Source: an uncultured Clostridia bacterium (lineage in GTDB: Bacteria; Bacillota; Clostridia; Oscillospirales; Ruminococcaceae). From it: DNA of 64,000 nucleotides. The notes under the pieces were generated by a model. It had not been told where the DNA came from, made no database searches, and was given only the letters and a program-made list of their open reading frames with translations. Each line of letters starts with the position of its first letter. Position 1 is the first letter of the stretch. A program made the translations under genes and the position numbers. The DNA is taken from NCBI GenBank assembly GCA_947304245.1, contig CAMZAK010000001.1, positions 62,001-126,000 of the forward strand. Reading direction: 5' to 3'. Shown one piece after another: positions 27,901 to 58,144 of this stretch.

Positions 27901-29154
27901 ATGAGAATTAGTAGAACCGGAGCAAAAACAAAGCATTCCAAAGCGCAAGCAGACAACATGTTTCAGCAGATTTTGCTTCAAGCTTCACAGCTTAAAATGC
28001 ATGCAGCAGGAATTTATGGATTTGGGCATTTTTTAATAAGAGCACGAAATAAGCTTGTGCAAATAATTAGAAAAAACTTAGAGGATTTTGGTTCTGCTGA
28101 AGTTAGTTTACCAATTCTACAACCAAAAGCATTGTGGCAAAATTCTGGTAGATGGGAAATTTTTGCTGGTGGGAAGCTTATGTTTAATTTTTCTGGCAGG
28201 AATGGGGACTATTGTTTGGCTCCAACCGGTGAAGAAATTGTTTTAGATTTTGCTAAAGATGCAATAATTTCTTATAAAGATTTACCAATTAACATTTTTC
28301 AGATTGGTAATAAATATAGAGATGAGATTCGTGTTAGAGGTGGAATTTTAAGAAGTAAAGAATTTTTGATGAAAGATGCTTACAGTTTTCATGCTAGTTT
28401 TGAAGACATGGTTTTGGAATATGAGTCTATGAAAAAATGCTATTTTAAAATTTTTAAAGATTTGGAGATGAAGGTTGTTGCTGTTAAAGCTTTAAATAGC
28501 GATATGGGTGGAAATGTTTCTGAAGAGTTTATGTGTTTTTCTAAAATTGGTGAGGACAAAATTTTAATTGATGAGGCTAGAAATCTTGCTTTTAACGAGG
28601 AAATTTTGCAAAATAAAGAAAAATTAGATGAATTGAAAAAAACATATGAAAATTTTAATGTTGAAGACTTAAAAAAGGTGGAATGCATAGAGTTAGGCCA
28701 TATTTTCCAGTTGGGGCAGCATTATTCTAAAAAAATGCAAGGTTTGTTTGTTGATGTGGATGGCGTAAAAAAGCCATATTACATGGGGTGCTATGGCATA
28801 GGAATTAACAGAGTTTTAGGCACAATTTGTGAGAACAATTGCGATGAAGAGGGGTTAATTTGGCCAAAAGCTATTGCACCATATAAATGTGTTATAATTT
28901 ATAACGAAAATAATAAAAACAAAGCAGAAGAAATATATTTAAAATTAAAACAACACGGGGTTGAAGTTGTTTTGTTTGACAAAGAAGCAGGTTTTGGAAG
29001 CAAAATTAAAGACTCTAAACTGCTTGGTTTTTTATATATAATAATTTTAGGGAACAAATTTAATGAAAATGGTTTATTTGAATTAGAAGACAGGATTAAT
29101 GCAAATAAAATATTTTTAGAAGAAGAAGAGTTGTTTAATTTTTTAAAGAATTAA
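27901..29154 (+). CDS. proS: Prolyl-tRNA synthetase, bacterial type without the editing insertion
   Basis: Class II aminoacyl-tRNA synthetase, 417 residues. Class II motif 2 is clear (NKYRDEIRVRGG...EFLMKDAYSFH near 140-165); motif 3 is GCYGIGINRVLG near 300; and the anticodon-binding domain fills the last 90 residues. Bacterial ProRS is normally about 570 residues because a roughly 180-residue INS domain that hydrolyses Ala-tRNA(Pro) sits between motifs 2 and 3; here only a short linker is present, as in alphaproteobacterial ProRS. Mischarged Ala would need trans-editing or be tolerated. GAGG precedes the ATG. Confidence 0.92.
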   Translation: MRISRTGAKTKHSKAQADNMFQQILLQASQLKMHAAGIYGFGHFLIRARNKLVQIIRKNLEDFGSAEVSLPILQPKALWQNSGRWEIFAGGKLMFNFSGRNGDYCLAPTGEEIVLDFAKDAIISYKDLPINIFQIGNKYRDEIRVRGGILRSKEFLMKDAYSFHASFEDMVLEYESMKKCYFKIFKDLEMKVVAVKALNSDMGGNVSEEFMCFSKIGEDKILIDEARNLAFNEEILQNKEKLDELKKTYENFNVEDLKKVECIELGHIFQLGQHYSKKMQGLFVDVDGVKKPYYMGCYGIGINRVLGTICENNCDEEGLIWPKAIAPYKCVIIYNENNKNKAEEIYLKLKQHGVEVVLFDKEAGFGSKIKDSKLLGFLYIIILGNKFNENGLFELEDRINANKIFLEEEELFNFLKN

Positions 29155-29318: not shown

Positions 29319-31403
29319 ATGGAAAATTATAGCAATGAAAAGATGTGGATTGAAACATTTTTAGTTCAAAATTATGGAATGAACTCAGATAGTAAAAATG
29401 AAAATTTTATAAATGATGGAGAGACTTTAATATATGACCCACACCCAAATAAGAAGGAACGAGAACAAATTGCAAAAAAACTATTAAAAGAAGCAGATAC
29501 ACAAGAATATGAAGAATATATAGACGACATGGTAGAACATTATATTGGAGAAAGAAATAACACAACAAAAAATTTATTTGATGAAGTTCTTTTTGACGAT
29601 AGTGCCTTATATACCAATAAAATAAATGTAAGTAAAAAGGATATGGAAGATAAGTCGAGTTGGCCTGTGTCACGGTTTTTAAAAGATGGAAAAATTAGAA
29701 CTGAAAATGAATTATTTTTGACTAGTAATTATTATTATAAAAAATATCATCTACTGTTTAATAAATTATTAAATGATATGTTTTTTATGATAAACCTATT
29801 TGAAGCTTCAAAAGCTAAAGAATTAGTAAAAAGTGAAAGCACTAGTGCAGATTATAGTGAATATAATAAATTTGAATTATTTAAAGATTATTCTTATCTT
29901 TATGAAATAATTGGAAAATTTATAAAACATTGTAAAGAACACGTTATACCCAAAGGAGCAATTTACGATAAAGAAAAAGAATGGGGAAAAGAAGGGCTGT
30001 TTAGTGCTATAAATAAAATTTTTAATTGTGGTATGAATCTTAATGATTTGGGATATTATACATACCAAATTGGAAATAAAGCTTATACTATATTTAGAAA
30101 AGTGTATAATAAATTTTTAAAAGAATTTGTTAGTTTTTCAGATTTATTTACTAAAAGAATGTTGGAAATAATTTCGAACTATAATAGTTTATTAAATGCA
30201 CTTAGGATGAGAATTGGTGTAATCCAGAATTCCCAAAAGGAGCTAGCAGATTGGTTAGAAAAATTAAATATATATGGATCTTTTAATTTAAATAATTTTA
30301 TAAATTTATTGAAAGAAAATAAAAATTTTAAAAATTGCCTTAAAAAATTTTTGCAATTTTATGAGAAAATAAAAAACAAAGAAAAATTAGACAAATATGA
30401 GAACAAATATGAGAATTTGAATGAAGTGTTATTAAAAGCAAAATATTTTGAATATTTTAAAAATAATAAAATAGATTTTGAGTTTATAAATAATTTAATT
30501 AAAATTTGTAATCAAAAAAATATAAATTCAAATAATTTAAACGAATTAATAAACAAATGTGGTGAAACGAATAATTTAAATTGTTTAAAAGAATTAATGA
30601 AAAACTTTATATCAGATTTTATGGAAAATTATCCTAAAGATGTTTTAAATAATACGAAAAACTTATTTGTAAAAGCTACTATTAGGCCATTAAGAGAGGC
30701 TATTAAAGCTATTGAGTCTCATTTTTATGAAATAGTAAATTTTTTAAATGAAAGAGACAAACTATTTTCAACATATATAAATGACCCACTTAAAAGTAGT
30801 GAATTTAAAAAAAAGTTTGAAAACTATAATGAAAAATTTTTGAAAAAAAATGAAAAACAACTAAACATTATATCTAATAACAAAAAGAAACAAAAAAAAG
30901 ATGATCTTGTAATAAGTTACAAGTTAAAGAATTCTAACCCTGGTGTTGAATTAGGAAAATATTTAAAAGAAGTAAGAGAAGATGTAAATTCATTTATTGA
31001 TGGTTATGATGAAGTTTTAGTAAATATAAAAGACAACAAAGAAGATGAGAAAGAAAAAATAAATCCTTCCTTTAACGTTATAGAAATTAGCAAACAAGAA
31101 AAAGCTGAAGAAATACCAAAAGGTAATGAAATATCATTAGTACAAATAAATGATATAGTTGATGATAATTCCAACAAAAAGAAAAATAATAATAACGAAA
31201 TAGTTGATAATTTAAAGAATTCCAATGAGGTTGTTGAACAAAAAGAAGATTTAAAATTAAAAATTAAAGAAGACGTTAAGCAAGAAGAAAAGAAAGAAGA
31301 GAAAAATGAGGAAACAAAATCAGAAATTGATGCGTTATTAGAAGAGATAAATGCAACAGGTAATAAGAAAAAAGGAAAAAATAAAAAGAAAAATAATAAA
31401 TAA
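29319..31403 (+). CDS. Large charged protein of unknown function
   Basis: 694 residues, not recognised. No signal peptide, membrane helix or enzymatic motif. Residues 1-110 are acidic. Residues 110-520 are mostly helical and rich in Lys, Asn, Glu and Phe. A tail of about 170 residues (about 525-694) is low-complexity, dominated by Lys, Glu and Asn with coiled-coil-like stretches, ending in a polybasic KKKGKNKKKNNK. It has a strong promoter, a near-perfect ribosome site (AAAGGAGGT) and a 16-bp terminator, so it is a deliberately expressed single-gene unit. It adjoins the amidase array, converging on it. It could be a structural or lineage-specific host-interaction protein; that is speculation. 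Confidence 0.8.
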   Translation: MENYSNEKMWIETFLVQNYGMNSDSKNENFINDGETLIYDPHPNKKEREQIAKKLLKEADTQEYEEYIDDMVEHYIGERNNTTKNLFDEVLFDDSALYTNKINVSKKDMEDKSSWPVSRFLKDGKIRTENELFLTSNYYYKKYHLLFNKLLNDMFFMINLFEASKAKELVKSESTSADYSEYNKFELFKDYSYLYEIIGKFIKHCKEHVIPKGAIYDKEKEWGKEGLFSAINKIFNCGMNLNDLGYYTYQIGNKAYTIFRKVYNKFLKEFVSFSDLFTKRMLEIISNYNSLLNALRMRIGVIQNSQKELADWLEKLNIYGSFNLNNFINLLKENKNFKNCLKKFLQFYEKIKNKEKLDKYENKYENLNEVLLKAKYFEYFKNNKIDFEFINNLIKICNQKNINSNNLNELINKCGETNNLNCLKELMKNFISDFMENYPKDVLNNTKNLFVKATIRPLREAIKAIESHFYEIVNFLNERDKLFSTYINDPLKSSEFKKKFENYNEKFLKKNEKQLNIISNNKKKQKKDDLVISYKLKNSNPGVELGKYLKEVREDVNSFIDGYDEVLVNIKDNKEDEKEKINPSFNVIEISKQEKAEEIPKGNEISLVQINDIVDDNSNKKKNNNNEIVDNLKNSNEVVEQKEDLKLKIKEDVKQEEKKEEKNEETKSEIDALLEEINATGNKKKGKNKKKNNK

Positions 31404-31470: not shown

Positions 31471-32589
31471 TTATGTGGATTTAAAATATTCTGTTATGGA
31501 TTTTTCTAACGCAGCCGCCATTTCTTGTCTTTTAATAGGGTTTAGTGCATGTTGCAATTCTGCATCGTTAGAGCCAAATCCTAGTTCCACTAATAACGCA
31601 ACTTCGGGGCCAGGTTGAGTAACTAAAAAAATGTTTCCTGCAACTTTGCTTGCATCTATGCCGGGAGATTGATATATATTTCTACAATTATTAAGTAAAA
31701 TTTCTCCTAATTTCTTACTTTTTTGTATGTAGTCTGCTGGGGCATCTCCTCTAAAATATGGTATGAAACCACGAATGTTTTTATTATCAGCAAAGTTATG
31801 GTGTAAACAAATTGAAACAAAGCGTGCATTTGGGTTGTTTTCTTTTAGTTTCTCTGCAACAGTTAACATTATTCTAGAAGTTGCTTCTGCCATTCTTCTG
31901 TTATATTTTCCATTTTTATTTTTATAGCCCGTAATTGGAGGACGGCATTTTTTAAAGATTATGTGTAACTTAGGGTTTTCATATGGCAAAACTAGGCCAT
32001 GTTCTTCTAAGTCGTAGGGCATGTAAACTTCATAGCCTTTATTTAATAATGATATTGCTAATTCAAATGAAATTAGTTGATTTAAAAATTTTTCTTTAAT
32101 TGTTCCATTGTTGAAGGTGGCGCCTTCATCTTCAAACCCATGACCTGGAATAAGCATAACGCTTAAATTATTTTTATCTGTTGGCAGGGTGGTTAACCTT
32201 TTAATGTAATTTTTTTCTTCATTATTTATTAAATTTTCTAAATTATTAATTCTTAGTTGTTCGTTTTTGTCTGCAGTTAAATTAGTAACTTTTTCAATTT
32301 CTGCTTTTTCTTTGTCATTTATAACTATTTCAGAAATTTCTTGGGGAGGCATACCAAAATAAGAATTTACTATTTCCCCGTCATTTTTTCCAGATCTCAT
32401 TAAATTTAGAATATATTTTCTTGTTGTAATTTTTTCTACTTTTATTTTTTCAATGTTATTTTGAACATTTAAAGCTTGTGCCTTAATTTTAAAATTACTT
32501 TTCTGTAGTGTTAACATCATAAAAAAACTTAAAACAATAATCTTTCTTATTTTTGTTTTAAGTTTTTTTTGTCTTAAATTAAATATAAT
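31471..32589 (-). CDS. Secreted N-acetylmuramoyl-L-alanine amidase (Amidase_3), array member A
   Basis: Zinc amidase cleaving the MurNAc-L-Ala bond of peptidoglycan. The catalytic domain keeps the first His (LIPGHGFEDEGA), Glu (GTIKEKF), second His (ICLHHN) and the general-base Glu (LLVELGFGSND). It precedes a stop and the bidirectional terminator. The first ATG is at 32520, but the frame is open upstream and encodes a basic, hydrophobic signal peptide (KIRKIIVLSFFMMLTL, cleavage after AQA). The only codons next to the Shine-Dalgarno AAGGGGAT are ATT 32589 and ATA 32586; no ATG, GTG or TTG fits. From ATT it has 372 residues. The middle has a charged helical linker shared with member C. Confidence 0.85.
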   Translation of the reverse strand: MIFNLRQKKLKTKIRKIIVLSFFMMLTLQKSNFKIKAQALNVQNNIEKIKVEKITTRKYILNLMRSGKNDGEIVNSYFGMPPQEISEIVINDKEKAEIEKVTNLTADKNEQLRINNLENLINNEEKNYIKRLTTLPTDKNNLSVMLIPGHGFEDEGATFNNGTIKEKFLNQLISFELAISLLNKGYEVYMPYDLEEHGLVLPYENPKLHIIFKKCRPPITGYKNKNGKYNRRMAEATSRIMLTVAEKLKENNPNARFVSICLHHNFADNKNIRGFIPYFRGDAPADYIQKSKKLGEILLNNCRNIYQSPGIDASKVAGNIFLVTQPGPEVALLVELGFGSNDAELQHALNPIKRQEMAAALEKSITEYFKST

Positions 32590-32744
32590 AACATCCCCTT
32601 TAACCTAAAATATCCATATAATAACCAAATAATGGAAATTACATGGATATTTTACCAATTTTAGGTAAATATTAATATATTTTTTATTTCTTATAGTGTT
32701 GAATTAAATTAAAAAAAATGTAAAATTGGAAAAATCTTTTTCAG

Positions 32745-33700
32745 TTTTTAAAATATTCTGTTATAGATTTTTCTAATTCATAAGATATTTCTTTTATTTT
32801 TATTTCATTTGATATTGTTCTAGTTGTTCTTTGTTTGTTCCAAATCTTAATTCTAAGTAAACGGCAGCCTCATGTCCTGGTTTATTAACTAAGTAGTTGT
32901 ATTTTTTAATATCACTAACATCTTTTCCTTTGGGGTTGAGTTGTGGTTTAAACTTAAAGAAACCAACCTAAAACTAGAATCTGCTTCTTTTAATTTTTCT
33001 GCTAACGTTAACATAATTGCAGATGTTAAATTAACAGGATCTTTTCTGAATTTGCCTTTATACTGTCCATTTTCAGTTTTTTCTCCTGTTACGGGTGGCC
33101 GGTAGCCTTTAAAAATTACATGTAAATTTGGGTTGGAATATGGCAGAACTAAATCACTTTCTTTCAAGTTGAAAGGAAGGTAAACATCATAATTTTTTTC
33201 TAATAGCTTTAATGTTAAATTTTATGTTACTAGTTGGTTTAATTTTCTTTTTTAAATTTTTTTATTTTTTTGTTTTTAAATCCTGCTCCATCTGCCTTAA
33301 AACTATGACCTGGAATTACCATAACACACTTCTATTTTTTGGAATATCTAAAAATTTTTTAATGTAGTCTCTTTTTTTTGTTCATCCCTATCTTTGGTTG
33401 TGTTAATTCGTTTTCTCCATCTATATTTTTGTTGCTGTCTTGTATATTATTTGTGAGATTTCTTGTGAAACATTTTAAAATAAGCTTCTTTTATTTCTTT
33501 TTCAGTTCTGTTTTTTTAAACAATATGTTAAATATGAATTTTTTAGTTGTCATTTCTTCTAATTTAATTTTTTCAATTCTTTCTGCAATTTCTGTACCAG
33601 TAATATAGCTTTTATTATCTTTGTTATTTTTTTGAACTTCAATTGTTTTCACTATATTTTTTGTCGGTTTTATTTTTAATTTATTGAATAAAAAATCAAT
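32745..33700 (-). pseudogene. Frameshifted amidase, array member B
   Basis: Pieces of an amidase close to member A lie in order in different frames: an N-terminal region near 33500-33700; MVIPGHSFKADGAGF near 33270-33320; a 92-codon open piece (32889-33167) with LVLPYSNPNLHVIF, RPPVTG and SLNHNS; and the C-terminal NKPGHEAAVYLELRFGTNKEQL near 32800-32880. The catalytic Glu and His motifs are still visible, but at least three frameshifts and several stops break the gene. It is recent enough to align easily with member A. A long-loop hairpin at 32609-32650 would have been its terminator. Confidence 0.9.
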
Positions 33701-33760
33701 TATTATATTAATAGGTTTTCAGTTGCCTTAAATTTTATGGTTAGAGTTTTATATAAAAAA

Positions 33761-33789
33761 AGTATAATTCAATTTAACTGAACTATACT
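33761..33789 (-). terminator. Terminator of amidase C
   Basis: 11-bp stem (33761-33771 with 33779-33789, one G-U), 7-base loop, then seven T on the minus strand. It is one of three related hairpins in the array built on AGTATARTTCA. Confidence 0.85.
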
Positions 33790-33880
33790 TATATGTTTAT
33801 GTTCGTGTTATTTTTTACTTTGATGTTTTTTTAAATGATATAGCAAATTTATGTTATGATTTATTATTAAAAATATTTTA

Positions 33881-35047
33881 TTAAACATTTTCAATATTTT
33901 TGTAGTATTCTACTATTGAATTTGCTGTTTTTTCTGCTAATTTTTTCATTAGTTTAGTGTTTAAAATTTTGTTTAATTGATCTTTATTGCACATGTACCC
34001 ATTTTCAACTAAAAGAGAGGCATGAATATTTCCTTTTCCAAAAGAAGTAATTAAAAAGTCTTTTCCAAAAACACCAGATTTTTCCGAAAATTCTTTTCCT
34101 TCTAATTTGTAAACATCCTTACAATTTTTAACTAAAATTTCTCCTAATTTTTTGCTGTTTTCAATGAATTGTGAATATTTTGAAGGCATTTTTTTAACTG
34201 CTTTTTCATTTTCTTTTTCATCTTCTTTTTCCATTCTGTAAAATGTTTTGTAACCATAAATTGAACAGCTGTTTTCTTTGCCGTTAATAGTTTCACTGCA
34301 ATAATCTCTTTGTCCACATGCATCGTGGTGAAAATCTAAACAAATTATTTTAGCGTTTGGTTTAAAATTTTTTACAATTTCTGCTGTTGCTTGAGAAAAC
34401 ATGTAGTGTCCATCTACAGGTCTTTTTTTATATTTTTTATCTTCTTTATTGTAAAACCCGTTAATTGCTGGTGGCCCGTAGTAGCTAAATAAAATATTTA
34501 AATAGGGGTTGTTTAGGGGTAGTTTTTCTTTGTTAACACGTCCTGTTAAAGGGGTGCATAAATAAACATTAACATTTTTATTTAAAAGATTTTTTGCAAC
34601 TTCAAAAGCAATGTCTTCATTAAAGTTTTTCTCATCAATTTTAAAATTTTGTGTACCGGGTTCATGGCTTCTTCGTCCACCGTGGCCTGGTGTTATTATT
34701 ACATGTAAATTTTCAAATTCTTTATTTTCATCATTTTTCAATGAATTTTTTTCTTTAACAACTTTATGCATTGCTTTTTTAATGTAATTATATTCTTTGT
34801 TATAAATTTCTTTTTCTATTGTTTCTATTTTATCTCCTTCAACTTTGTCATTTTTAATTATTTCTGCTTTAATTTCTGGTGATAAAGAATAATAATTTTT
34901 AACAATTTCATTGTCAAGAATGTAGTTTTTAATTGAATTTAAAATTAAATTGTGTGTTGTTAATTTTTCTTTTTTTATAAAACTAATAACAAGTTTTTTA
35001 TTTGTATTCTGATTTTCAAGTAAAAATTCAAATATGTTTTTAATAAT
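33881..35047 (-). CDS. N-acetylmuramoyl-L-alanine amidase-like protein, array member C
   Basis: Amidase_3 fold with His (TPGHGG), Glu (KIDEKNF), His (CLDFHHDACG) and Glu (LLVENGYMCN) retained. The first ATG is at 34771, yet the frame continues upstream for 92 codons and encodes TTHNLILNSIKNYILDNEIV, which aligns with the linker of member A, so translation must start earlier. After a good Shine-Dalgarno (AAAGGAGATG) the frame offers only ATT ATT at 35047; from there it has 388 residues. The N-terminus contains only a short hydrophobic patch (KKLVISF), so a functional signal peptide is doubtful. Cysteine-rich relative to A. Could be partly decayed. Confidence 0.75.
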   Translation of the reverse strand: MIKNIFEFLLENQNTNKKLVISFIKKEKLTTHNLILNSIKNYILDNEIVKNYYSLSPEIKAEIIKNDKVEGDKIETIEKEIYNKEYNYIKKAMHKVVKEKNSLKNDENKEFENLHVIITPGHGGRRSHEPGTQNFKIDEKNFNEDIAFEVAKNLLNKNVNVYLCTPLTGRVNKEKLPLNNPYLNILFSYYGPPAINGFYNKEDKKYKKRPVDGHYMFSQATAEIVKNFKPNAKIICLDFHHDACGQRDYCSETINGKENSCSIYGYKTFYRMEKEDEKENEKAVKKMPSKYSQFIENSKKLGEILVKNCKDVYKLEGKEFSEKSGVFGKDFLITSFGKGNIHASLLVENGYMCNKDQLNKILNTKLMKKLAEKTANSIVEYYKNIENV

Positions 35048-35080
35048 TTACATCTCCTTTAAATTTTTAGTTAAAAAAAG

Positions 35081-35105
35081 TATAGTTCAACTTAAATGAA
35101 CTATA
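35081..35105 (-). terminator. Hairpin terminator-like repeat beside scrap D
   Basis: Perfect 9-bp stem (TATAGTTCA at 35081-35089 with 35097-35105), 7-base loop and T-run on the minus strand. Same family as the hairpins at 33761 and 35308. Confidence 0.75.
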
Positions 35106-35189
35106 ATTATTTTATTAATTTTGCAATTAATTTGTGTAGATTATTTTTTTAAAATTTTATTGCCAATATATTTACAGATTCATCGTTAA

Positions 35190-35300
35190 AAATTGAGTTT
35201 TTAATTGAATTTAAAATTAAATTGTGTGTTGTTAATTTTTCTTTTTTTATGAAACTAATAATATGTTTTTAATAATTTATGTCTTATTTAAATTTTTAGT
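35190..35300 (-). pseudogene. 5' scrap of an amidase gene (array unit D)
   Basis: About 110 bases nearly repeat the 5' end of member C (leader, ATT-ATT-AAA-AAC start area and first 40 or so codons, minus an internal 39-base stretch) and then stop. A frameshift and stop lie in it. With the adjacent hairpin it looks like an amidase unit that has lost nearly all of its body. Nothing else is seen in 35048-35371. Confidence 0.8.
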
Positions 35301-35307
35301 TAAAAAA

Positions 35308-35340
35308 TAAGCACAATTCAACTTAAATGAACTATGCTTA
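35308..35340 (-). terminator. Terminator of amidase E
   Basis: Imperfect 13-bp stem (TAAGCACAATTCA with TGAACTATGCTTA, two weak positions), 7-base loop, with T-rich sequence on both strands; directly downstream of the array member E stop. Confidence 0.8.
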
Positions 35341-35371
35341 TTTTTTTAATTTTTAAATTAATTTGTGTAGA

Positions 35372-36625
35372 TTATTTTTTTATAATTTTAATGCCAAGAT
35401 ATTCCCAGAACTCCAATAAAGCATCCACAAAATTTTCAGCCATTTCTTTTATTTTCTTAATATCTTTGAAAAATTTTAATTGTTCTGGGTTTCTAACATT
35501 TCCATTTTCAATTAGTAAAGAAACTAAAATATTTTTAAATGCTTGTTTGGTTATTTTATAATCGTTTTCTTTTGCACCATTAACATGTTTTTGTTGTTTG
35601 TTTTTTGTGTCATAAACATCACTACAATATTCGTTTATTATTTCTGCAAGTTTTTTACTGTTTTTATAAAAATCTTTTGTGGATTTTTTTTCAAGTTTTC
35701 TGTAATATGGAGTAAAACAACAAACGTTTGGTTCTGGGCATTCGTGATGGTCTTCAAACGCAATAATTTTTTTCTTTGGGTTTAATTCTAAAACTCTTTT
35801 TGCAAATGCTTTGTAAACTTCATAATAAGCATCCACTTTTCTTCTTATGTATCTTTTACTTTCTTTGTCAAAAGAACCGTTAATTGGCAGAATTAAATAT
35901 ACTTCATCAAATGCACAATGAATTCTTTTTAAATCTTCTTCGCTTAATCTTTCATCTGTTTTGAAGGTTTTTTTCGTAATGCTGTTTTGTAATGGGTAGC
36001 ATAAAAGAATATGTACATTTTTTGTACGTCTTAAAATTTCAACAATTTTTTCATAAACTAAGTTTTCGTTTATTATGCTTTCTTTTGTGTTATGGTAAAA
36101 ACAACCACTATCTAACCCGAAAGGGCCTGGGCCGTGCCCTGAGCTAGCCATTAGTAAAACGGCGTTTTTTCCAAGTTTTGAAAGAACTCTGTTAACAATT
36201 TTTCTTAGGAATTCTTCTTCAGCTTCAACTATTTTGTCTTCTATTTCAAAAACTCTTTTATTTATTCTTTCATTCTTTGAAACAGTTTCTCTTTTTTTTA
36301 TTTTTTTTTCAAGCATTTTTGAATTGAAAATTAATAAAGATTTAATATCTTTTAACAATTTAAAATATTTATCTACAATTTCATCATCTGCTAAACCTCT
36401 TTTAAGATTTTTATGAATCCATTTATTCAAAGTTATTTTTTCTTCTTTAATTTCTCTAAAAGTGGAATTATTCTCATGTTTTGAGATTTTAACTGTTGCG
36501 TTAGCAATTGTTGAATCATAGCCTATTTTATTAATTTTTGGTGTAGCCACCATTAAAAAAGAGGCTAAAAATAATGGTTTTACAAATTTAAAAAATTTTT
36601 TACTTATTTTAAACTTCTTTTTCAA
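35372..36625 (-). CDS. Secreted amidase-like protein, array member E
   Basis: 417 residues. Signal peptide with a very basic start and hydrophobic core (FKFVKPLFLASFLMVATP, about 12-29). A helical linker (60-160) with the same EKITLNKWI...DDEIVDKYF pattern as in member A, then a diverged Amidase_3 domain: SSGHGPG, NTKESIINEN (Glu), FEDHHECPE (His) and LLIENGNVRN (Glu). All four active-site positions persist despite low identity to members A and C. Start is TTG 36625 with GGAGAAAAGG upstream. It is the 3'-most in coordinates and first transcribed of the array. Confidence 0.85.
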   Translation of the reverse strand: MKKKFKISKKFFKFVKPLFLASFLMVATPKINKIGYDSTIANATVKISKHENNSTFREIKEEKITLNKWIHKNLKRGLADDEIVDKYFKLLKDIKSLLIFNSKMLEKKIKKRETVSKNERINKRVFEIEDKIVEAEEEFLRKIVNRVLSKLGKNAVLLMASSGHGPGPFGLDSGCFYHNTKESIINENLVYEKIVEILRRTKNVHILLCYPLQNSITKKTFKTDERLSEEDLKRIHCAFDEVYLILPINGSFDKESKRYIRRKVDAYYEVYKAFAKRVLELNPKKKIIAFEDHHECPEPNVCCFTPYYRKLEKKSTKDFYKNSKKLAEIINEYCSDVYDTKNKQQKHVNGAKENDYKITKQAFKNILVSLLIENGNVRNPEQLKFFKDIKKIKEMAENFVDALLEFWEYLGIKIIKK

Positions 36626-36803
36626 TTTACCTTTTCTCCTTTTCTATTTTATTTTAGTAAATTATACCATAAAATTTTAAAAATGACAAGATCTTTAAAA
36701 ATTAGACATAAAATTTTTTCTTATTTTAAAATTTATTTAGTTTATTAATTTTAAAGATTGGAATTAGAGTTTATAAATAAGTTTAAAACAACTGTAACAA
36801 AAT

Positions 36804-36832: not shown

Positions 36833-36870
36833 AAAATTATTAAAATAGATTTAATAATTTGGAGAGAGTT

Positions 36871-37371
36871 TTGAAAATAATTGGAGTGGACCCTGGTTAT
36901 GCAATTGTTGGTTGGGGCGTTTTGAATTATAATAATTCTAAATTTTTAACCATAGACTATAATGCTATTACAACATTAGCGCAGGAACAATTTTCAAAAA
37001 GGTTAGAGTTAATATATGATGAAATAAGTTATGTTTTAAATGTTTACAAGCCCGATTGCATTTCAATAGAAAAATTATTTTTTTCTGTTAACAAGAAGAC
37101 GGCAATTGATGTTGCTCAAGCTAGGGGAGTTATTTTGTTGGCTGCTAAAAAGTTTAATATTCCAATTTTTGAATATGCACCAGTTGAAGTAAAGCAGGCA
37201 ATTGCGGGTTACGGAAGAGCCACTAAAAAACAGGTTATGGATATGGTTAAACTTACGTTAAATTTAAATAAAATTCCAAAGCCAGACGACGTTGCAGATG
37301 CTTTGGCTTTGGCTGTTGCTCATGCTCATTGTAGTTTTTCTAAATTATTTTCATTAAAGGAGAATTTATGA
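36871..37371 (+). CDS. ruvC: Crossover junction endodeoxyribonuclease RuvC
   Basis: Holliday-junction resolvase, 166 residues. Acidic active site: D7 in IIGVDPGYAIVGWG, Glu in ISIEKLFFSVNKKTA near 68, and the Asp pair in PDDVADALALAVAHAH near 140. TTG 36871 is the likely start: GGAGAG sits 4-10 bases before it, whereas an in-frame TTG at 36859 precedes that site. The stop TGA overlaps the ruvA ATG, indicating coupled translation. Confidence 0.95.
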   Translation: MKIIGVDPGYAIVGWGVLNYNNSKFLTIDYNAITTLAQEQFSKRLELIYDEISYVLNVYKPDCISIEKLFFSVNKKTAIDVAQARGVILLAAKKFNIPIFEYAPVEVKQAIAGYGRATKKQVMDMVKLTLNLNKIPKPDDVADALALAVAHAHCSFSKLFSLKENL

Positions 37372-50886: not shown

Positions 50887-51498
50887 TTAATTAGTTTTCC
50901 TGTTTTTAATTAGTTTTAGTCTGCTAAATTCTTCTCTTTCTTTTTCTTCTAAAGCATCTGAAATATATTTTATGTTTTCTTCAACCTTAGGAATAACAAT
51001 GTTTTCTAATGCGTTAGCACGAATTTTGGTTTCTTTAATTTCTTTAGAAAGAGAATATATGCTGTTTTCAATTTCTGCTAAAATTATGCTAATTTCTTTA
51101 GCTTTTAAAAACCAAAAATATGCTGTGTCTAAATGAGAGTTTGTGTTTAAAATGCCATATTCTCTGCCAGTAACATTAGAATTTAACGTTACTTTAGGAA
51201 TTTCAATTCCCATAACGCTTTTATATTCAATTGAAATGCCTGTTTCAACCGTTGTTAATTCTGCAATGTTTTCGCAGTTTTCAAGTGTTAAATTAGCCAT
51301 TTTCAAAGCTTCATAAGCTTTTTTAAAGGTTTCTTCTACGTCGTTTCTAATTGTTTTTGCAACTTCAACTAGTGGCATCATCTCTCTAATTAAAATATTT
51401 CTTTTTTTGTCCATTAACTCGAAACCTAGTTTGGAAAGCTGCAAGTTTTTCTTTAAATTAATTAAATTACCTTTAGTTGGAGATAAAAATGTTGCCAT
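50887..51498 (-). CDS. atpD: V/A-type ATPase subunit D (central stalk)
   Basis: 203 residues, long antiparallel coiled coil with the N-terminal PTKGNLINLKKNLQLSKLGFELMDKKRNIL signature. Rotor shaft coupling the A3B3 head to the membrane ring. Last gene of the nine-gene operon. AAGGAG precedes the ATG. A degraded piece of this gene lies just after its stop. Confidence 0.95.
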   Translation of the reverse strand: MATFLSPTKGNLINLKKNLQLSKLGFELMDKKRNILIREMMPLVEVAKTIRNDVEETFKKAYEALKMANLTLENCENIAELTTVETGISIEYKSVMGIEIPKVTLNSNVTGREYGILNTNSHLDTAYFWFLKAKEISIILAEIENSIYSLSKEIKETKIRANALENIVIPKVEENIKYISDALEEKEREEFSRLKLIKNRKTN

Positions 51499-51522
51499 AT
51501 AAACTCTCCTTAAAAATATTAT

Positions 51523-52920
51523 TTAAATTTGTGTTTTATGAGGTTCTTCATAAAATTCGTCTAAAATTTTGGTGTCTATTCTGTCTAGCTCTTTTTTTGG
51601 AAGCAGTGCTAAAAGGTTCCATCCAAGGTTTAGTGTTTGCTCTATTGTTCTGTTTTCGTTTAAATTTTGCGTTATAAACTTTTCTTCAAATTCTTTTCCA
51701 AACTTAATGTAGGCTTTGTCTATTTCAGAAAGTTTTTCTTCACCTATTACAGATGCTAAAGACTTAATTTCTTGCACTTTTGCGTAAGATGCAAAAAGCT
51801 GGTTTGCTAGGTCTTTGTGGTCTTTTCTTGTAAACCCTTCTCCAATTCCGTCTTTCATTAACCTCGAAAGAGAAGGCAAAATTGCAATTGGAGGATATAT
51901 TCCTCTTTTGTTTAACTCCTTTGAAAGAACAATTTGCCCTTCGGTTATATAACCTGTTAAGTCTGGCACTGGGTTTGTTATGTCTCCATTTGGCATTGTT
52001 AAAATAGGGATTTGTGTTAAAGAACCTTTAGAACTTTTTAAAACACCAGCTCTTTCGTAAATTTGCGCAAGGTCGGAATATAAATAACCTGGAAAACCTT
52101 TTCTTCCTGGAATTTCTCCTTTGGATGAAGAAATTTCTCTAACCGCTTCAGCGTAAGATGTCATATCTGTTAAAATTACTAAAACATGCATGTTTTTTTC
52201 AAATGCTAAATATTCTGCTGCAGTGAGAGCAGCTCTTGGAGTTAAAATTCTTTCAATTATTGGGTCGTTGGAAAGGTTTAAAAACATTACAACATTTTTT
52301 AGAATTCCGCTTTCTTCAAATTTTGTTTTAAAGTAATCTGCTACGTCGTTTTTAACACCCATTGCAGCAAAAACAATGCAAAAATTATCTTTCTCATTGG
52401 TGTCCACTATTTTAGCTTGGTTTACAATTTGAACAGCTAACTTGTTGTGAGGCAAACCAGCATCTGAAAAAATTGGAAGTTTTTGACCTCTAATTAGGGT
52501 AGACAAAGCGTCTATTGCAGAAATTCCTGTTTCTATGAAGTTTTTGGGGTAAACCCTAGAAATTGGGTTTATTGCAGAACCGTTTATGTCTTCATATTTT
52601 TCCACAAAAATTTCTCCGAACCCGTCAATTGGCTTACAAGAACCGTTAAAAATTCTGCCAATCATTTCTGTTGAAAGTGGCATTTTTAGTGGTTCTCCGG
52701 TAAAATTAATTTTAGTGTTACTTAAAGAAAGATTGTTAGTTCCTTCAAAAACTTCAATTACAACCTTTTTTCCCTCTATTTTAACAATCTTACCCTGACG
52801 TATTTGCTTATTGTTAACCACAATTTCAACTAGTTCGTCAAACGCAGCATTTTCAACATTATCTAAAAAAACCAATGGTCCGTTAATTGCATTCAAACCA
52901 ATATGACGTATAACTGCCAT
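51523..52920 (-). CDS. atpB: V/A-type ATPase subunit B (non-catalytic)
   Basis: 465 residues. Regulatory nucleotide-binding subunit of the A3B3 hexamer. It lacks a Walker A lysine motif, as expected, and has SGLPHNK-like [13 protein letters not shown] near 157, [44 protein letters not shown] near 255, and [12 protein letters not shown] near 350. GGAGG precedes the ATG. Lies between atpA and atpD. Confidence 0.97.
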
Positions 52921-52950
52921 ATTTTTTCCTCCAATTCTAATGAAAAATCT

Positions 52951-54711
52951 TTAATTTTTAATGTTTTCTTTAAAATATGAATCTATTTTTTCAATGTATT
53001 CATCAAATTTTTCTAAATTTTCATTTGTTGTCTCATATTTAATGTTATATATGTTGTTTAAAACATCGCTCTCTTTTAGTTGCGAAAAGTTTATGGTGTT
53101 GTTAATTGCTTTAGAAGATATATCATAAAAATGTAATATTACTTCCATCATACGTTTTTGTTTTTTTAGCGTTACAAAACAATCGTTTTCATTAAATGCA
53201 TTTTGTTGTAAAAACAACACTCTAATGATTTTTGCAGTTTCAATAATTAATTTTTCTTCGTCTGGTAAAACATCCATCCCAATTAGTTTTACAATTTCTA
53301 AAAGTTCTGCTTCTTTTGCAAGAATTGAAGAAATTTTCTTTTTCATCTGCAAAAATTCTTCACCTAGGTTTTCATCAAAAAAGTTTTTTAGGTCTTCATC
53401 ATATTCGCTGTAGCTGTCCATCCAATTTATTGCGGGGTAGTGCCTTGCATAGGCTAAAGATTTGTCTAACGCCCAAAAACACCTAACAAACCTTTTTGTG
53501 TTTTGCGTTACTGGTTCTGAAAAGTCTGAGCCTTGCGGGGAAACTGCTCCAATTATTGTAATAGAGCCTTCTTTTCCAGATAATGTTTTTACATATCCTG
53601 CTCTTTCGTAAAACTGAGAAAGACGAGAAGGTAGGTATGACGGGAAACCTTCTTCTGCTGGCATTTCTTCTAGCCTTCCAGAAATTTCTCTTAATGCTTC
53701 TGCCCATCTTGAAGTGGAATCTGCCATTATTGCAATATGGTAGCCCATGTCTCTGTAGTATTCTGCTAGAGTTATTCCGGTGTAAATGGATGCTTCTCTT
53801 GCTGCAACCGGCATGTTAGATGTGTTTGCAATTAAAACAGTTCTTTCTGTTAAAGCTTTTTTGGTTCTAGGGTCTATTAAATGAGAAAATTCTTCTAAAA
53901 CTTGAGTTATTTCGTTTCCACGTTCACCACAGCCAATGTAAATTATAATGTCTGCGTCGCACCATTTTGCAATTGCGTGTTGTGTCATTGTTTTTCCTGT
54001 GCCAAATCCTCCTGGGATTGCTGCTGTTCCTCCTTTTGCTATGGGGAACATTGTGTCTATTATTCGTTGCCCTGTAACTAGTGGTTTTGAAATTTTAAGC
54101 CTTTCTTTTACTGGTCTTGTTTTTCTAATTGGCCATTTTTGGCATAGGTTAACCTTAATTAGTTCGCCATTTTTGCTTTCAAACTCTAAAACATCTTCGT
54201 TAACAGAATATTCTCCATCAGGAGCTGTTTTTGTTACTATTCCGCCTTCTAAAAAAGGGGAGAGCATGCATTTATGCGTTATTGACTCTGTTTCTTTGCA
54301 TTCTGCATAAATTTGCCCCGGCTTAATTTCTTCTCCAACTTTGGCAACAATTTTAACGTTAAACTTTTTGTTTAGGTTTAAAGATTCTATGTTAGAGCCA
54401 ACTTCAATGAAACAACCACTTTTTTCTTCCATGCTTTTTAAAGGGCGCAAAATTCCATCAAAAATTCCTGAAACAATTCCTGGCCCAAGCGTTGCAAAAA
54501 GAGGCATTTTTGTGGAATAAACAGGTTCATTTGGCTTTAACCCGTTTGTTGTTTCATAAACCTGAATTGTTGTTTCAAAGTCGTTAACCGAAATTACTTC
54601 TCCAATTATTTTTTTTTCTCCAACGTAAACCATTTCCATCATAGAAAATTCTTTGGTGTTTCTAACTTTAACTACTGGTCCGTTAATTGAAAAAATTTTA
54701 CTGTTTGGCAA
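52951..54711 (-). CDS. atpA: V/A-type ATPase subunit A (catalytic)
   Basis: 586 residues. Catalytic ATP site with Walker A PGGFGTGKTM near 228, IYIGCGERGNE with the catalytic Glu near 256, and MADSTSRWAEALREISGRLEEMPAEEGFP near 327; bulge domain (about 110-190) characteristic of V/A-type A subunits is present. Only 7 bases separate it from subunit E, so it is tightly coupled. Hydrolyses or makes ATP according to ion gradient. Confidence 0.97.
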   Translation of the reverse strand: MPNSKIFSINGPVVKVRNTKEFSMMEMVYVGEKKIIGEVISVNDFETTIQVYETTNGLKPNEPVYSTKMPLFATLGPGIVSGIFDGILRPLKSMEEKSGCFIEVGSNIESLNLNKKFNVKIVAKVGEEIKPGQIYAECKETESITHKCMLSPFLEGGIVTKTAPDGEYSVNEDVLEFESKNGELIKVNLCQKWPIRKTRPVKERLKISKPLVTGQRIIDTMFPIAKGGTAAIPGGFGTGKTMTQHAIAKWCDADIIIYIGCGERGNEITQVLEEFSHLIDPRTKKALTERTVLIANTSNMPVAAREASIYTGITLAEYYRDMGYHIAIMADSTSRWAEALREISGRLEEMPAEEGFPSYLPSRLSQFYERAGYVKTLSGKEGSITIIGAVSPQGSDFSEPVTQNTKRFVRCFWALDKSLAYARHYPAINWMDSYSEYDEDLKNFFDENLGEEFLQMKKKISSILAKEAELLEIVKLIGMDVLPDEEKLIIETAKIIRVLFLQQNAFNENDCFVTLKKQKRMMEVILHFYDISSKAINNTINFSQLKESDVLNNIYNIKYETTNENLEKFDEYIEKIDSYFKENIKN

Positions 54712-54718
54712 TTTAAAT

Positions 54719-55324
54719 TCACCCTATCTTATAATTTTTTAAATTTAACTCAGATGTTTTATAAAAGTTTTTAAAAACTTTTTTTAGTAAAGTTTCAAAT
54801 GTTTCGTCTATTTCAATAGCTTTTTTTGTGTCTACTAAAATAAATCCACCTAAATTTATGTTTGGGTCTTTCTCAAATTTTTTAATTTCTTTAATGGAAG
54901 AGATTTGTTCTTTAAAAATTAAATCTTCTTCTTTAAGTTTAATTATAACTTCATTGCATGAATTTTCTCTTAATGTTTTTTGTATTTTATCTAACAAATA
55001 ATTCACGTAATTTTCAGACTTTGTAAAACGATTTAAATTTTTTTCACAAAGGCCATATATTTTTTTAATTTCTTCATTTTTAAAATTTAAAATTTCTTTT
55101 TCCATTTCAAATGTTTTTTTTGCTAATTTAAATTTATAGCTAGCCTTTAAATTATTAATTTTTTCTTCAATTTTAGGTAAGATTTCTTTCTTTGCATTTT
55201 TTTCTGTTTCTTTTAATTCTTCATTTAACTTTAAAATTTTAATTTTAATTTCTTCTGCCTTTTTTTTAGCATCTTTTAAAATAATATCTTTAAATGATGT
55301 TAATTTTTTTTCATCGTAAGACAT
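54719..55324 (-). CDS. atpE: V/A-type ATPase subunit E (peripheral stalk)
   Basis: 201 residues: N-terminal two-thirds a lysine/glutamate coiled coil, C-terminal globular domain with NLGGFILVDTKKAIEIDETFETLL. Forms the peripheral stator stalk with the small coiled-coil subunit (59077-59391). Identity rests on the C-terminal pattern and position between F and A. Confidence 0.92.
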   Translation of the reverse strand: MSYDEKKLTSFKDIILKDAKKKAEEIKIKILKLNEELKETEKNAKKEILPKIEEKINNLKASYKFKLAKKTFEMEKEILNFKNEEIKKIYGLCEKNLNRFTKSENYVNYLLDKIQKTLRENSCNEVIIKLKEEDLIFKEQISSIKEIKKFEKDPNINLGGFILVDTKKAIEIDETFETLLKKVFKNFYKTSELNLKNYKIG

Positions 55325-55345
55325 AATAAAATACCACTTTTCTTA

Positions 55346-55657
55346 TTATATTTTTATGCCAATTGAGTCGTTTATATATTTACTAATTAAACCACTAACA
55401 TTAGAGTTTTCATCATCATTAGGAATTGTAACAATTAGTGGGAGTTTAAATTTTGCTTTAATTTTTAAAATTTCTTCTTCACAAAGCTTAACCAAATTTT
55501 GAGTTATTAAAACAATTCCAATTTCTTTTTTTTCTTTTGTTATTTCATTTAACTTATTTATAACTTCTTCTTTAGAATTCAAAACAATTCCTTCAATTCC
55601 TGCTAAGCGCATTCCTGTTTTTGTGTCTTTGCTACTGCTAATGCAAAAAATCTTCAT
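55346..55657 (-). CDS. atpF: V/A-type ATPase subunit F
   Basis: 103 residues, Rossmann-like, starting MKIFCISSSKDTKTGMRLAGIEGI, with IGIVLITQNL near 48 and PLIVTIP near 74. Regulatory central-stalk subunit. The ATG at 55657 is preferred over an in-frame TTG at 55669 from family alignment; neither has a strong ribosome site. Confidence 0.92.
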   Translation of the reverse strand: MKIFCISSSKDTKTGMRLAGIEGIVLNSKEEVINKLNEITKEKKEIGIVLITQNLVKLCEEEILKIKAKFKLPLIVTIPNDDENSNVSGLISKYINDSIGIKI

Positions 55658-55682
55658 AAACCAACCCAACTTTTTAATTAAT

Positions 55683-56126
55683 TTAATTTGAAAATAATAT
55701 TAAAAATGAAATAACGAATCCGTAAATTGCAATACCTTCACCCAAAACAACAAAAATCATTGCTTTTCCGAATGTGTCTTTGTCTTCGCTGTAGGCTCCT
55801 ATTGCTGCTGGGGCTGCTCCTCCCACTGCAATTCCTGCCCCTATGCAGGCTAAACCTGTTGAAATAGCGGCACCTATGAATTTTAAACCTTCACTTAAGT
55901 TTTTAGGGTTTTGTGCAGATGAAGCTGCTGCTTCCATGGCGTGAACAGGAAAACTTTGTGTTAAAAAAACTATTGTTGCAATAATTAGAGTTAAAAAAAA
56001 CAAAACAAAATGAGTTGCAAAACGTGTTTTTACATAGTTTTTAGGTTTAGAGGAAAAGAGAGGAATTACCGGAGTTAATGTTAAAGTTAATGCTAATAAC
56101 GGTAGTGCTAAAAATAAAATATTCAT
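55683..56126 (-). CDS. atpK: V/A-type ATPase subunit K (membrane rotor ring)
   Basis: 147 residues. Two N-terminal hydrophobic segments then the c-type hairpin: Gly/Ala-rich helix (STGLACIGAGIAVGGAAPAAIGA) and final helix VVLGEGIAIYGFVISFLILF with the ion-binding Glu. Extra N-terminal helices are usual in clostridial K subunits. The residue after the Glu is Gly, not the Ser/Thr of typical sodium sites, which leans toward proton coupling; this is an inference only. Preceded by AAGGAGC. Confidence 0.93.
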   Translation of the reverse strand: MNILFLALPLLALTLTLTPVIPLFSSKPKNYVKTRFATHFVLFFLTLIIATIVFLTQSFPVHAMEAAASSAQNPKNLSEGLKFIGAAISTGLACIGAGIAVGGAAPAAIGAYSEDKDTFGKAMIFVVLGEGIAIYGFVISFLILFSN

Positions 56127-56154
56127 ATTATTATGCTCCTTATTTTATAAAATT

Positions 56155-58122
56155 TTAATTTTTAAAATTAATTTTAACAGGATTAAAGGGTTTGCCGTTA
56201 GATTTGTAAAACCTGCTAAATATTTCATAATAAACCAACCTTAAAGCTTGAATTGAAACAATTAAACCTTCTAAAAGAATTACGAATGCGTTTCCAATTA
56301 CAACAATTAAAACGAAACTTAAAGTTCCAACGCCGTTTAAAGAACTAGCCATTTTTGCAAATTTCATTACAACCAACATTAATGCAGCATGGCTGAGCGC
56401 TAGCCCTCCAATTCTTAAAAAAGAAAGTGTATTTGTAAAGTAACTTAGTAATATGTCAATCATATCGAAAATCGCTGAAGAAATTGTGAATTTTTCTCTT
56501 TTTTCATGTTTTACTTTCATGTTTTTTTCAATTAAACCGCTAAGTGGAATATTAAAAAATATTAAAATTATTGGTAAAACAAAAATTAACAAAATAAAAA
56601 CTGGTGAAACTATGTTTTTATTATATAAAATTAAATATAATACTGCAAAAGTAACTCCTCCATAGCAAACAAAACCAGAAACGCCGTTATGTGAAAAAAT
56701 TGCTTCTCCTAAATTTTTGCTTTTTAAGTTTAAATATATGTTAATTCCAATTGAAATTAAAATTAAAGCCATTCCCATTAAGCAAGATACAACTAAAATA
56801 GGGATTGAATTAGAAGGTTTTAACAAGTGAAACGGTAAAGTTTCTCCTAATCCAAAATTTTTCCAAAAGTTTTCTAAAAGGCCTTCAAAACCAAAAATGG
56901 AGTCGAACAGTGTTCCAAAAATTATGCTGGAAAAGCCACATCTCGTTAGAATTAAACCTAGTTTGTTTTTCATTTTCTTCCAGGCAAAAATTCCGCCAAT
57001 TAAAAGAATTAAGCCTTGGCCTAGGTCTCCAAACATTATTCCAAAAACTATGCTGTAAACCAATCCAACTAAGCTTGAAGGGTTAATTGAACCATATTGC
57101 GGAGTGCCATATGTTGAAACATACATCTCAAACGGTTTAAACAACCTAAAGGTTTTCAGCTTAACTGGTGGGGAATATTTTTCATCATATTCATCTTTTA
57201 AAATTTCGTAAACAATGTTTTTTTCTTCTTTAAAAATTTCATCAAACTTTTTAATTTCTCTGGTTGGAATAAAGCCGCAAATGTTAAACTGTTTATTGTT
57301 GACTGCTGCAAATTTTCTGTAACTAAAAACATCGTTTAAAATTTTAAATTTTTCAAAAAGTTTTTGTAAAATTTCTAAATGTTCTTCTTTTAATTTTTCT
57401 TTTTCAAAATTAATGTCTTTTAAGTCTATTTCTAAATATTCAATTTTTTTATTTATTTCTTCTTCTGCATTTTCTGCATTGTTTCGGTTTAATTTTAATT
57501 CATCTGGTATTTCATATTCTAAAAAGCCTAAATTTTTGAAAAATTCAAATGTTTGGGTTTCTTGTGGTTTTGGCGTTACGTAAAAACCCCAACAGTTGTT
57601 TTGGTCTTCATCTTGTTTTAAAAAATAAAAATTTTCATCTTTAGCGTTTTCAATTTTAAAATAGTTTTCTTTTGAAATTTTCCCAAAATGAGTGCTTATG
57701 AATTTGGAATTTAAAATGTCTTGTAAATTTTCATCTAAATTGTTCATATGGCTTATTATAGTTAAATTTTCTTTTAAATTTTTAATTTTGTTATTAATTC
57801 TGTTGGTTTCTTCTTCAAATTTTAAAAGCAGTTGATTACAAACATTTAAAAACTCATTTTCAGAATCTGTAATTGTAACATTTTCATTTAAATTAAAATT
57901 ATAATTTAAATCTATTTTTAAAATTTTAAATATGTTTTTAATTTTGTTTAACGGTTCTGTGTATGGGTTTTGTTCATTTAAAACTTTAAAATTTAATGGG
58001 TTTTTGGTTTCTTTAATTTTTTCTATGTGAAACATTTTAAAATTAATTAGTTTTAAAATGCATTCATTTAAAAAAGAATTTTTGCCTACTATGTTAACCA
58101 AACTCATTGTTTCAATTGACAA
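56155..58122 (-). CDS. atpI: V/A-type ATPase subunit I (membrane stator)
   Basis: 655 residues: cytoplasmic half with long coiled coils (1-330), then seven or eight membrane helices. The motif SLVGLVYSIVFGIMFGDLGQGLIL near 355 and LSYFTNTLSFLRIGGLALSHAALM near 560 (the conserved Arg of the ion channel) identify the a-like subunit. Start TTG 58122 has AGAGGAGA 9 bases upstream; an ATG 15 bases later is the alternative. Confidence 0.95.
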   Translation of the reverse strand: MSIETMSLVNIVGKNSFLNECILKLINFKMFHIEKIKETKNPLNFKVLNEQNPYTEPLNKIKNIFKILKIDLNYNFNLNENVTITDSENEFLNVCNQLLLKFEEETNRINNKIKNLKENLTIISHMNNLDENLQDILNSKFISTHFGKISKENYFKIENAKDENFYFLKQDEDQNNCWGFYVTPKPQETQTFEFFKNLGFLEYEIPDELKLNRNNAENAEEEINKKIEYLEIDLKDINFEKEKLKEEHLEILQKLFEKFKILNDVFSYRKFAAVNNKQFNICGFIPTREIKKFDEIFKEEKNIVYEILKDEYDEKYSPPVKLKTFRLFKPFEMYVSTYGTPQYGSINPSSLVGLVYSIVFGIMFGDLGQGLILLIGGIFAWKKMKNKLGLILTRCGFSSIIFGTLFDSIFGFEGLLENFWKNFGLGETLPFHLLKPSNSIPILVVSCLMGMALILISIGINIYLNLKSKNLGEAIFSHNGVSGFVCYGGVTFAVLYLILYNKNIVSPVFILLIFVLPIILIFFNIPLSGLIEKNMKVKHEKREKFTISSAIFDMIDILLSYFTNTLSFLRIGGLALSHAALMLVVMKFAKMASSLNGVGTLSFVLIVVIGNAFVILLEGLIVSIQALRLVYYEIFSRFYKSNGKPFNPVKINFKN

Positions 58123-58144
58123 AATTTTTTCTCCTCTCTTCTAA

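What the first reader, a model, noticed from the sequence alone, without database searches (positions are those of the whole stretch)
31471..36625. Tandem array of diverging secreted cell-wall amidases, with dead members
Five amidase units lie head to tail on the minus strand: A (alive), B (frameshifted), C (probably alive), D (5' scrap) and E (alive). A, C and E are strongly diverged from one another but all keep the His, Glu, His, Glu catalytic set. A and C share a helical N-terminal linker, and a conserved NP-L-(I/V)-F ... PP-I/V-(T/N)G insertion occurs in A, B and C. Birth-and-death expansion of wall hydrolases in an otherwise shrinking genome suggests selection, perhaps on wall thinning, muropeptide release or interaction with a host or phage. 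That purpose is speculation.
Basis: partly seen in the sequence, partly recalled or inferred. Interest (0 to 1): 0.65.

Follow-up and report, generated by a model that had tools for sequence, protein, structure and literature searches.

The report
Decaying tandem array of wall amidases
A bacterium with a very small genome has turned one cell-wall-cutting enzyme gene into five side-by-side copies, three with an intact reading frame and active site, one wrecked and one mere scrap, which shows a gene family being born and dying fast, although the enzyme type itself is ordinary.

Summary
On the minus strand between proS and ruvC lie five head-to-tail Amidase_3 units: A, B (dead), C, D (scrap) and E. 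A, C and E keep all four zinc/catalytic residues although only 25-32% identical. They are the genome's only Amidase_3 genes found.

- Only E is clearly a secreted protein with an ordinary start.
- C has no signal peptide and needs an ATT start. A and C are the only two of 47 window ORFs with this problem.

Related genomes of the same reduced genus keep one amidase at this spot (two with a glucosaminidase domain, one with the linker) or two. In the two-copy genome one copy has lost all four catalytic residues yet stays open for 409 codons. The helical linker and the NP..F..PP.G insert belong to this subclade, not to the array alone. The amidases diverged far more than neighbouring genes. The tree favours expansion within this lineage but does not exclude an older first duplication.

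Most likely these are cell-separation amidases undergoing birth and death with fast, partly relaxed evolution. A host or phage role is untested.

The parts
31471..32589 (-). Unit A: Amidase_3 with signal peptide and helical linker; intact. Translation would start at ATT 32589 or ATA 32586; the first ATG (32520) lies inside the signal peptide.
   Evidence: Pfam 61.9 bits; open frame and start analysis; AF2 model pLDDT 82 matching Amidase_3 structures, Z up to 21.4
32741..33712 (-). Unit B: dead copy, closest to A; at least five frame changes, in-frame TAA codons, internal deletion, zinc-Glu and second zinc-His lost
   Evidence: tblastn pieces; sister of A in the tree; dN 0.34 / dS 1.12 against A
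33881..35047 (-). Unit C: Amidase_3, 388-codon open frame, four catalytic residues kept; no signal peptide; SD AAAGGAG followed by ATT, no ATG/GTG/TTG nearby
   Evidence: Pfam 57.5 bits
35149..35276 (-). Unit D: scrap, 5' end of a C-type unit joined to the 3' tail of an E-type unit (internal deletion scar)
   Evidence: DNA self-comparison; linker remnant 25 bits
35372..36625 (-). Unit E: most diverged Amidase_3, TTG start, signal peptide, helical linker; closest to ruvC
   Evidence: Pfam 25.3 bits (below cut-off 27); BLASTP to C 3e-30; AF2 model matching CwlD
36661..36689 (-). Promoter-like TTGTCA-17-TATAAT upstream of E
   Evidence: read from the sequence; not tested for function
35312..35336 (-). 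Terminator-like hairpin between E and D, repeated with the unit
   Evidence: folding z -4.6
35081..35105 (-). Terminator-like hairpin between D and C
   Evidence: folding z -2.1
33763..33787 (-). Terminator-like hairpin between C and B
   Evidence: folding z -2.3
32606..32654 (-). Strong hairpin just before the ribosome-binding site of A (no T-run after it)
   Evidence: folding -35.4 kcal/mol, z -5.6
32182..32457 (-). N-terminal helical linker domain of A (same domain in E 36185-36463, C 34760-34987, remnant in D 35170-35259)
   Evidence: profile search; helix order alike in both AF2 models

Best explanation
The array comes from one ancestral wall amidase (Amidase_3, a zinc N-acetylmuramoyl-L-alanine amidase) that sits between ruvC and proS in this genus. 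Shown: in the subclade holding this genome no other Amidase_3 gene, no NlpC/P60 and no glucosaminidase domain is detected, the remaining amidase carries an N-terminal helical domain not seen elsewhere in the genus, and in this genome it is present as five tandem units of which two are dead. Inferred: unequal recombination between the terminator/leader repeats made and removed copies; the living enzymes are exported by Sec, are held or regulated through the helical linker, and cut the amide bond between MurNAc and L-Ala for daughter-cell separation; having several copies relaxed constraint, so they diverge fast. E is probably the well-expressed member; A and C are probably translated weakly from ATT/ATA starts, and C may act inside the cell or be on its way out.
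For: Synteny with single amidases in G003, G005 and G006 and a pair in G001. No other Amidase_3, no NlpC/P60 and no Glucosaminidase hit in G000, G001 and G006. Fold and catalytic residues. Tree with A+B and C+E pairs. Repeat units and deletion scar D. A and B differ with dN 0.34 against dS 1.12, so B was constrained before it broke. Linker confined to these proteins in the genus. AUU and AUA starts behind strong SD sites are real in Firmicutes, at about 10% of AUG efficiency (PMC13009471).
Against: No activity, expression or localisation is known. C has no signal peptide. The non-canonical starts could instead mean that A and C are recently silenced. Synonymous sites are saturated, so timing and dN/dS are rough. 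Support for monophyly of this genome's units is modest (91/75).
Confidence: 0.6

Rival explanations
1. The first duplication is older: A is the ortholog of G001 unit 2, and the remaining units derive from a second ancient copy. Only some of B, C and D are then recent.
For: A and G001 u2 are reciprocal best hits (35%, E 3e-52) and both lie nearest proS; AU test does not reject trees that join them (p 0.084-0.118).
Against: The best tree groups A, B, C and E; the tree that also joins C/E with G001 u1 is rejected (p 0.019).
Confidence: 0.3
2. The array is mostly decay: only E works; A and C lost their start codons and are pseudogenes in waiting, as in other shrinking genomes.
For: A and C are the only SD-ATT cases among 47 window ORFs; C lacks a signal peptide; B and D are already dead.
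Against: A and C keep 377 and 388 codons open and all four catalytic residues; A keeps a good signal peptide upstream of its first ATG; a dead gene in so AT-rich a genome should gain stops quickly.
Confidence: 0.25
3. The amidases act outside the cell on something other than the cell's own wall, such as removing muropeptides that a host would sense, or attacking other bacteria; rapid change reflects an arms race.
For: Signal peptides, very fast divergence, and a maintained pseudoenzyme in the sister genome. The genus resembles the intracellular small genome clade of PMC10579323, which is predicted to secrete host-directed proteins.
Against: No targeting domain, no site-wise evidence of positive selection, no phage relatives found in viral contigs, and the enzyme is the only Amidase_3 left, which suggests a housekeeping duty.
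Confidence: 0.15

Closest known systems
CwlD / CwlV type N-acetylmuramoyl-L-alanine amidases (Amidase_3, PF01520)
   Same: Fold (7rag, 1jwq, 4rn7; Z about 20-21), His-Glu-His zinc site and catalytic Glu, Sec export in A and E
   Different: Far below the CwlD equivalog cut-off (47 against 221.6 bits); extra helical N-terminal domain; insert before the second zinc-His; tandem array with dead members
Division amidases AmiA/AmiB/AmiC of E. coli and Bartonella
   Same: Same catalytic fold, Z 19-20
   Different: Below the AmiA and AmiC model cut-offs; no AMIN domain found; the insert is before the second zinc-His, not in the later position that I recall for the inhibitory helix
Single syntenic amidase of G003 and G005 (Amidase_3 plus Glucosaminidase)
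   Same: Same place next to ruvC and proS, signal peptide, Amidase_3
   Different: Single copy, C-terminal glucosaminidase domain, no helical linker, slow evolution
Small genome clade of endosymbiotic Clostridia (Ca. Improbicoccus, Ca. Paraimprobicoccus; PMC10579323)
   Same: Reduced AT-rich genomes in a family of larger genomes; ATP/ADP translocase in five of eight genus members
   Different: This genome and its two nearest relatives show no translocase hit; the main text of that paper does not mention amidases; identity of the genus by name was not established

Membership tests
Amidase_3 (PF01520) zinc amidases | Pfam gathering score | tested here: met
   A 61.9 and C 57.5 bits against 27; E at 25.3 falls just short and is placed by homology to C
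Amidase_3 (PF01520) zinc amidases | Zinc ligands His, Glu, His and catalytic Glu | tested here: met
   Present in A, C, E, G001 u2, G006, G003, G005; all four replaced in G001 u1 (F, T, F, F)
Amidase_3 (PF01520) zinc amidases | Amidase_3 fold | tested here: met
   Model of A: Z up to 21.4 to 4rn7; model of E: best hit 7rag, E 6e-6
Amidase_3 (PF01520) zinc amidases | Amidase activity on peptidoglycan | not testable with these tools
   needs purified protein
CwlD spore-cortex amidase (TIGR02883) | Equivalog cut-off | tested here: not met
   A 47.1, C 31.0, E 17.8 bits against 221.55
AmiA / AmiC division amidases (NF007652, NF038267) | Curated model cut-off | tested here: not met
   at most 26.9 bits against 400, and 14 against 700
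Amidase-glucosaminidase autolysin as in G003 | Glucosaminidase domain PF01832 | tested here: not met
   no hit in G000, G001 or G006
Birth-and-death tandem gene family | Tandem paralogs with pseudogenes, syntenic single copy in relatives | tested here: met
Birth-and-death tandem gene family | Paralogs monophyletic within the lineage | tested here: inconclusive
   best tree yes (91/75), alternatives not rejected
Phage endolysin | Relatives in viral contigs | tested here: inconclusive
   no relative found with A as query; such a scan finds close relatives only

The most novel reading that the evidence does not exclude
In these reduced Clostridia the last wall amidase has become a diversifying set of secreted proteins carrying a lineage-specific helical domain, in which some members have dropped catalysis (G001 u1) and others are throttled by AUU/AUA starts, so that enzyme, pseudoenzyme and weakly made copies together tune wall cleavage or act on a host or rival.
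Probability: 0.15. Interest if true: 0.6.

Novelty: new variant of a known kind. Interest (0 to 1): 0.36.

Why it matters
Reduced genomes are expected to lose duplicates, so a wall-enzyme family that grows at one locus while every other Amidase_3 is gone is a clean natural case of birth and death under genome reduction. The open-frame pseudoenzyme in the sister genome and the paired ATT-type starts are testable and would bear on how host-bound bacteria retune wall cleavage. If nothing more is found, it remains a well-documented but ordinary amidase expansion.

Tried and rejected
Phage origin: a viral-contig scan with A found no relative; it can miss distant ones. Horizontal acquisition of separate units: not supported, since the ingroup units share the linker and insert and lie at the syntenic locus. 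Clean dN/dS: synonymous sites saturated. Naming the organism: the one genome-contig scan (with a RuvC alignment) returned Oscillospirales/Clostridia neighbours but no recognisable member of the genus; an amidase search of those 80 loci found one hit (L082), not followed up. Linker domain: no PDB sequence match; the fold searches were filled by the amidase domain, so the linker's fold was barely tested. The two K/E-rich neighbours (window 694 aa, G001 about 450 aa) are not detectably related. Literature searches for amidase arrays in reduced genomes found nothing matching.

Full report
What is there. The minus strand between proS (27901-29154 +) and ruvC (36859-37371 +) carries five head-to-tail amidase units, in order of transcription E, D, C, B, A. 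Pfam Amidase_3 is hit by A (61.9 bits), C (57.5) and marginally by E (25.3, cut-off 27); a whole-genome search finds Amidase_3 only at these units. B aligns to A only in pieces whose frame goes 2, 1, 2, 1, 3, 2, with in-frame TAA codons and a missing stretch of about 40 residues. D is the 5' end of a C-type unit joined to the 3' tail of an E-type unit. The zinc and catalytic residues H, E, H, E are present in A, C and E.

Starts and signal peptides. A's first ATG (32520) lies inside the hydrophobic core of a signal peptide. Read from the ATT or ATA behind AAAGGGG, the N-terminus is IIFNLRQKKLKTKIRKIIVLSFFMMLTL..., with seven positive residues and a 12-residue core of mean hydropathy 2.7; from the ATG the core is lost (0.2). 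C's open frame begins TAA-ATT-ATT behind AAAGGAG and encodes no signal peptide. In a survey of 47 long window ORFs only A and C have their ribosome-binding site followed by ATT/ATA with no ATG, GTG or TTG to use (my reading of that table). B and D share the same kind of 5' end (read). E has a TTG start, a good SD and a promoter-like TTGTCA-17-TATAAT. AUU and AUA starts behind strong SD sites are documented in Staphylococcus aureus at about a tenth of AUG efficiency (PMC13009471), and an AUU start in Borrelia (PMC13398362). So weak translation of A and C is plausible but not shown.

Relatives. The genome (1.06 Mb, 40 contigs, 98% complete) belongs to a genus of eight reduced genomes (0.8-1.6 Mb) within a family of mostly 2-3 Mb genomes. 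Among 61 genomes searched, matches to A at E 1e-6 or better occur only in this genus. G003 and G005 have one amidase between ruvC and proS, with a signal peptide and, in G003, a clear C-terminal glucosaminidase domain. G006 has one 511-residue amidase there with the linker. G001 has two, and its contigs C9 and C11 share their end sequence, so the order there is ruvC, a secreted K/E-rich protein, u1, u2, proS. G007 has no amidase in the 1.4 kb upstream of ruvC. G000, G001 and G006 have no other Amidase_3, no NlpC/P60 and no Glucosaminidase hit, but keep four or five M23 proteins.

A pseudoenzyme next door. G001 u1 has a signal peptide and 409 open codons but has replaced all four catalytic positions (F, T, F, F).

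Domain content. A profile of the linker (about 90 residues, TT.K.ILN......EIV..YY.......I..ND) finds only these amidases in G000, G001 and G006, plus the D remnant; one further hit in G005 is at noise level (E 0.09). AlphaFold2 models of A (pLDDT 82) and E (66) place the same series of helices before the amidase domain. The catalytic part matches Amidase_3 structures (Z up to 21.4). The linker had no sequence match in the PDB and its fold was not separately tested.

Evolution. The best tree pairs A with B and C with E and separates them from the G001/G006/outgroup units (91/75); A+B is split from the rest at 98.5/100. AU tests do not reject trees in which A and G001 u2 are orthologs (p 0.084, 0.118), but reject one that also joins C/E with G001 u1 (p 0.019). 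Between G000 and G001 the neighbouring genes are 55-80% identical while the amidases are 28-35%. At similar (saturated) dS, dN is 0.58 for A against u2, 0.17 for proS and 0.11 for the single-copy amidases of G003 and G005. Second-position changes remain rarer than third-position ones, and A against B gives dN/dS about 0.3, so constraint existed but was weaker. Adaptive change cannot be told from relaxation with these data.

Mechanism. The terminator-like hairpins and leaders are repeated with the units, and D is a scar of the kind unequal recombination leaves; that route is inferred. As the only Amidase_3 proteins found, the living units most likely separate daughter cells; this is inferred from the family. 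The hairpin before A (z -5.6) and the ATT/ATA starts suggest low or regulated output for A; this too is inferred.

Setting. The genus resembles the small genome clade of intracellular Clostridia (PMC10579323): five of eight members have the ATP/ADP translocase, but this genome and its two nearest relatives show none.

Verdict. The array is real and its description is largely correct; it is a new variant of a known kind. The surprise is moderate: growth and decay at one locus while all other Amidase_3 genes are gone, a neighbour's open-frame pseudoenzyme, and paired ATT-type starts.

Noticed in passing
L041:1523-2752 (G001 u1): Amidase-like secreted protein of 409 codons with all four catalytic residues replaced (F, T, F, F) and no stop: apparently a maintained pseudoenzyme.
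   Followed up: partly
window 29319-31403 (+): 694-residue K/E-rich protein with no relative found in the genus and no signal peptide, lying between proS and the array.
   Followed up: partly
L041:1-1296 with L034:1-110 (G001): Secreted K/E-rich protein of about 450 residues between ruvC and the amidases; its 3' end is followed by a near repeat of itself.
   Followed up: partly
G000, G001, G006: No ATP/ADP translocase (PF03219) hit, unlike the other five genus members, although nearly all of the related published clade has it.
   Followed up: no
L035 (G006 ruvC): ruvC carries an in-frame TAA while ruvA is intact and ruvB open as far as the contig goes.
   Followed up: no
L038:41-729 (G007): Two small proteins with similar MSKMKDNK..NEAAETVAGGA leaders (look like double-glycine peptide precursors) where relatives have the amidase.
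   Followed up: no
window 32606-32654: Very stable hairpin (z -5.6) directly before the ribosome-binding site of A, without a T-run.
   Followed up: partly
window 50887-59071 (-): V-type ATPase gene cluster (by sequence recognition, not by a family search).
   Followed up: no
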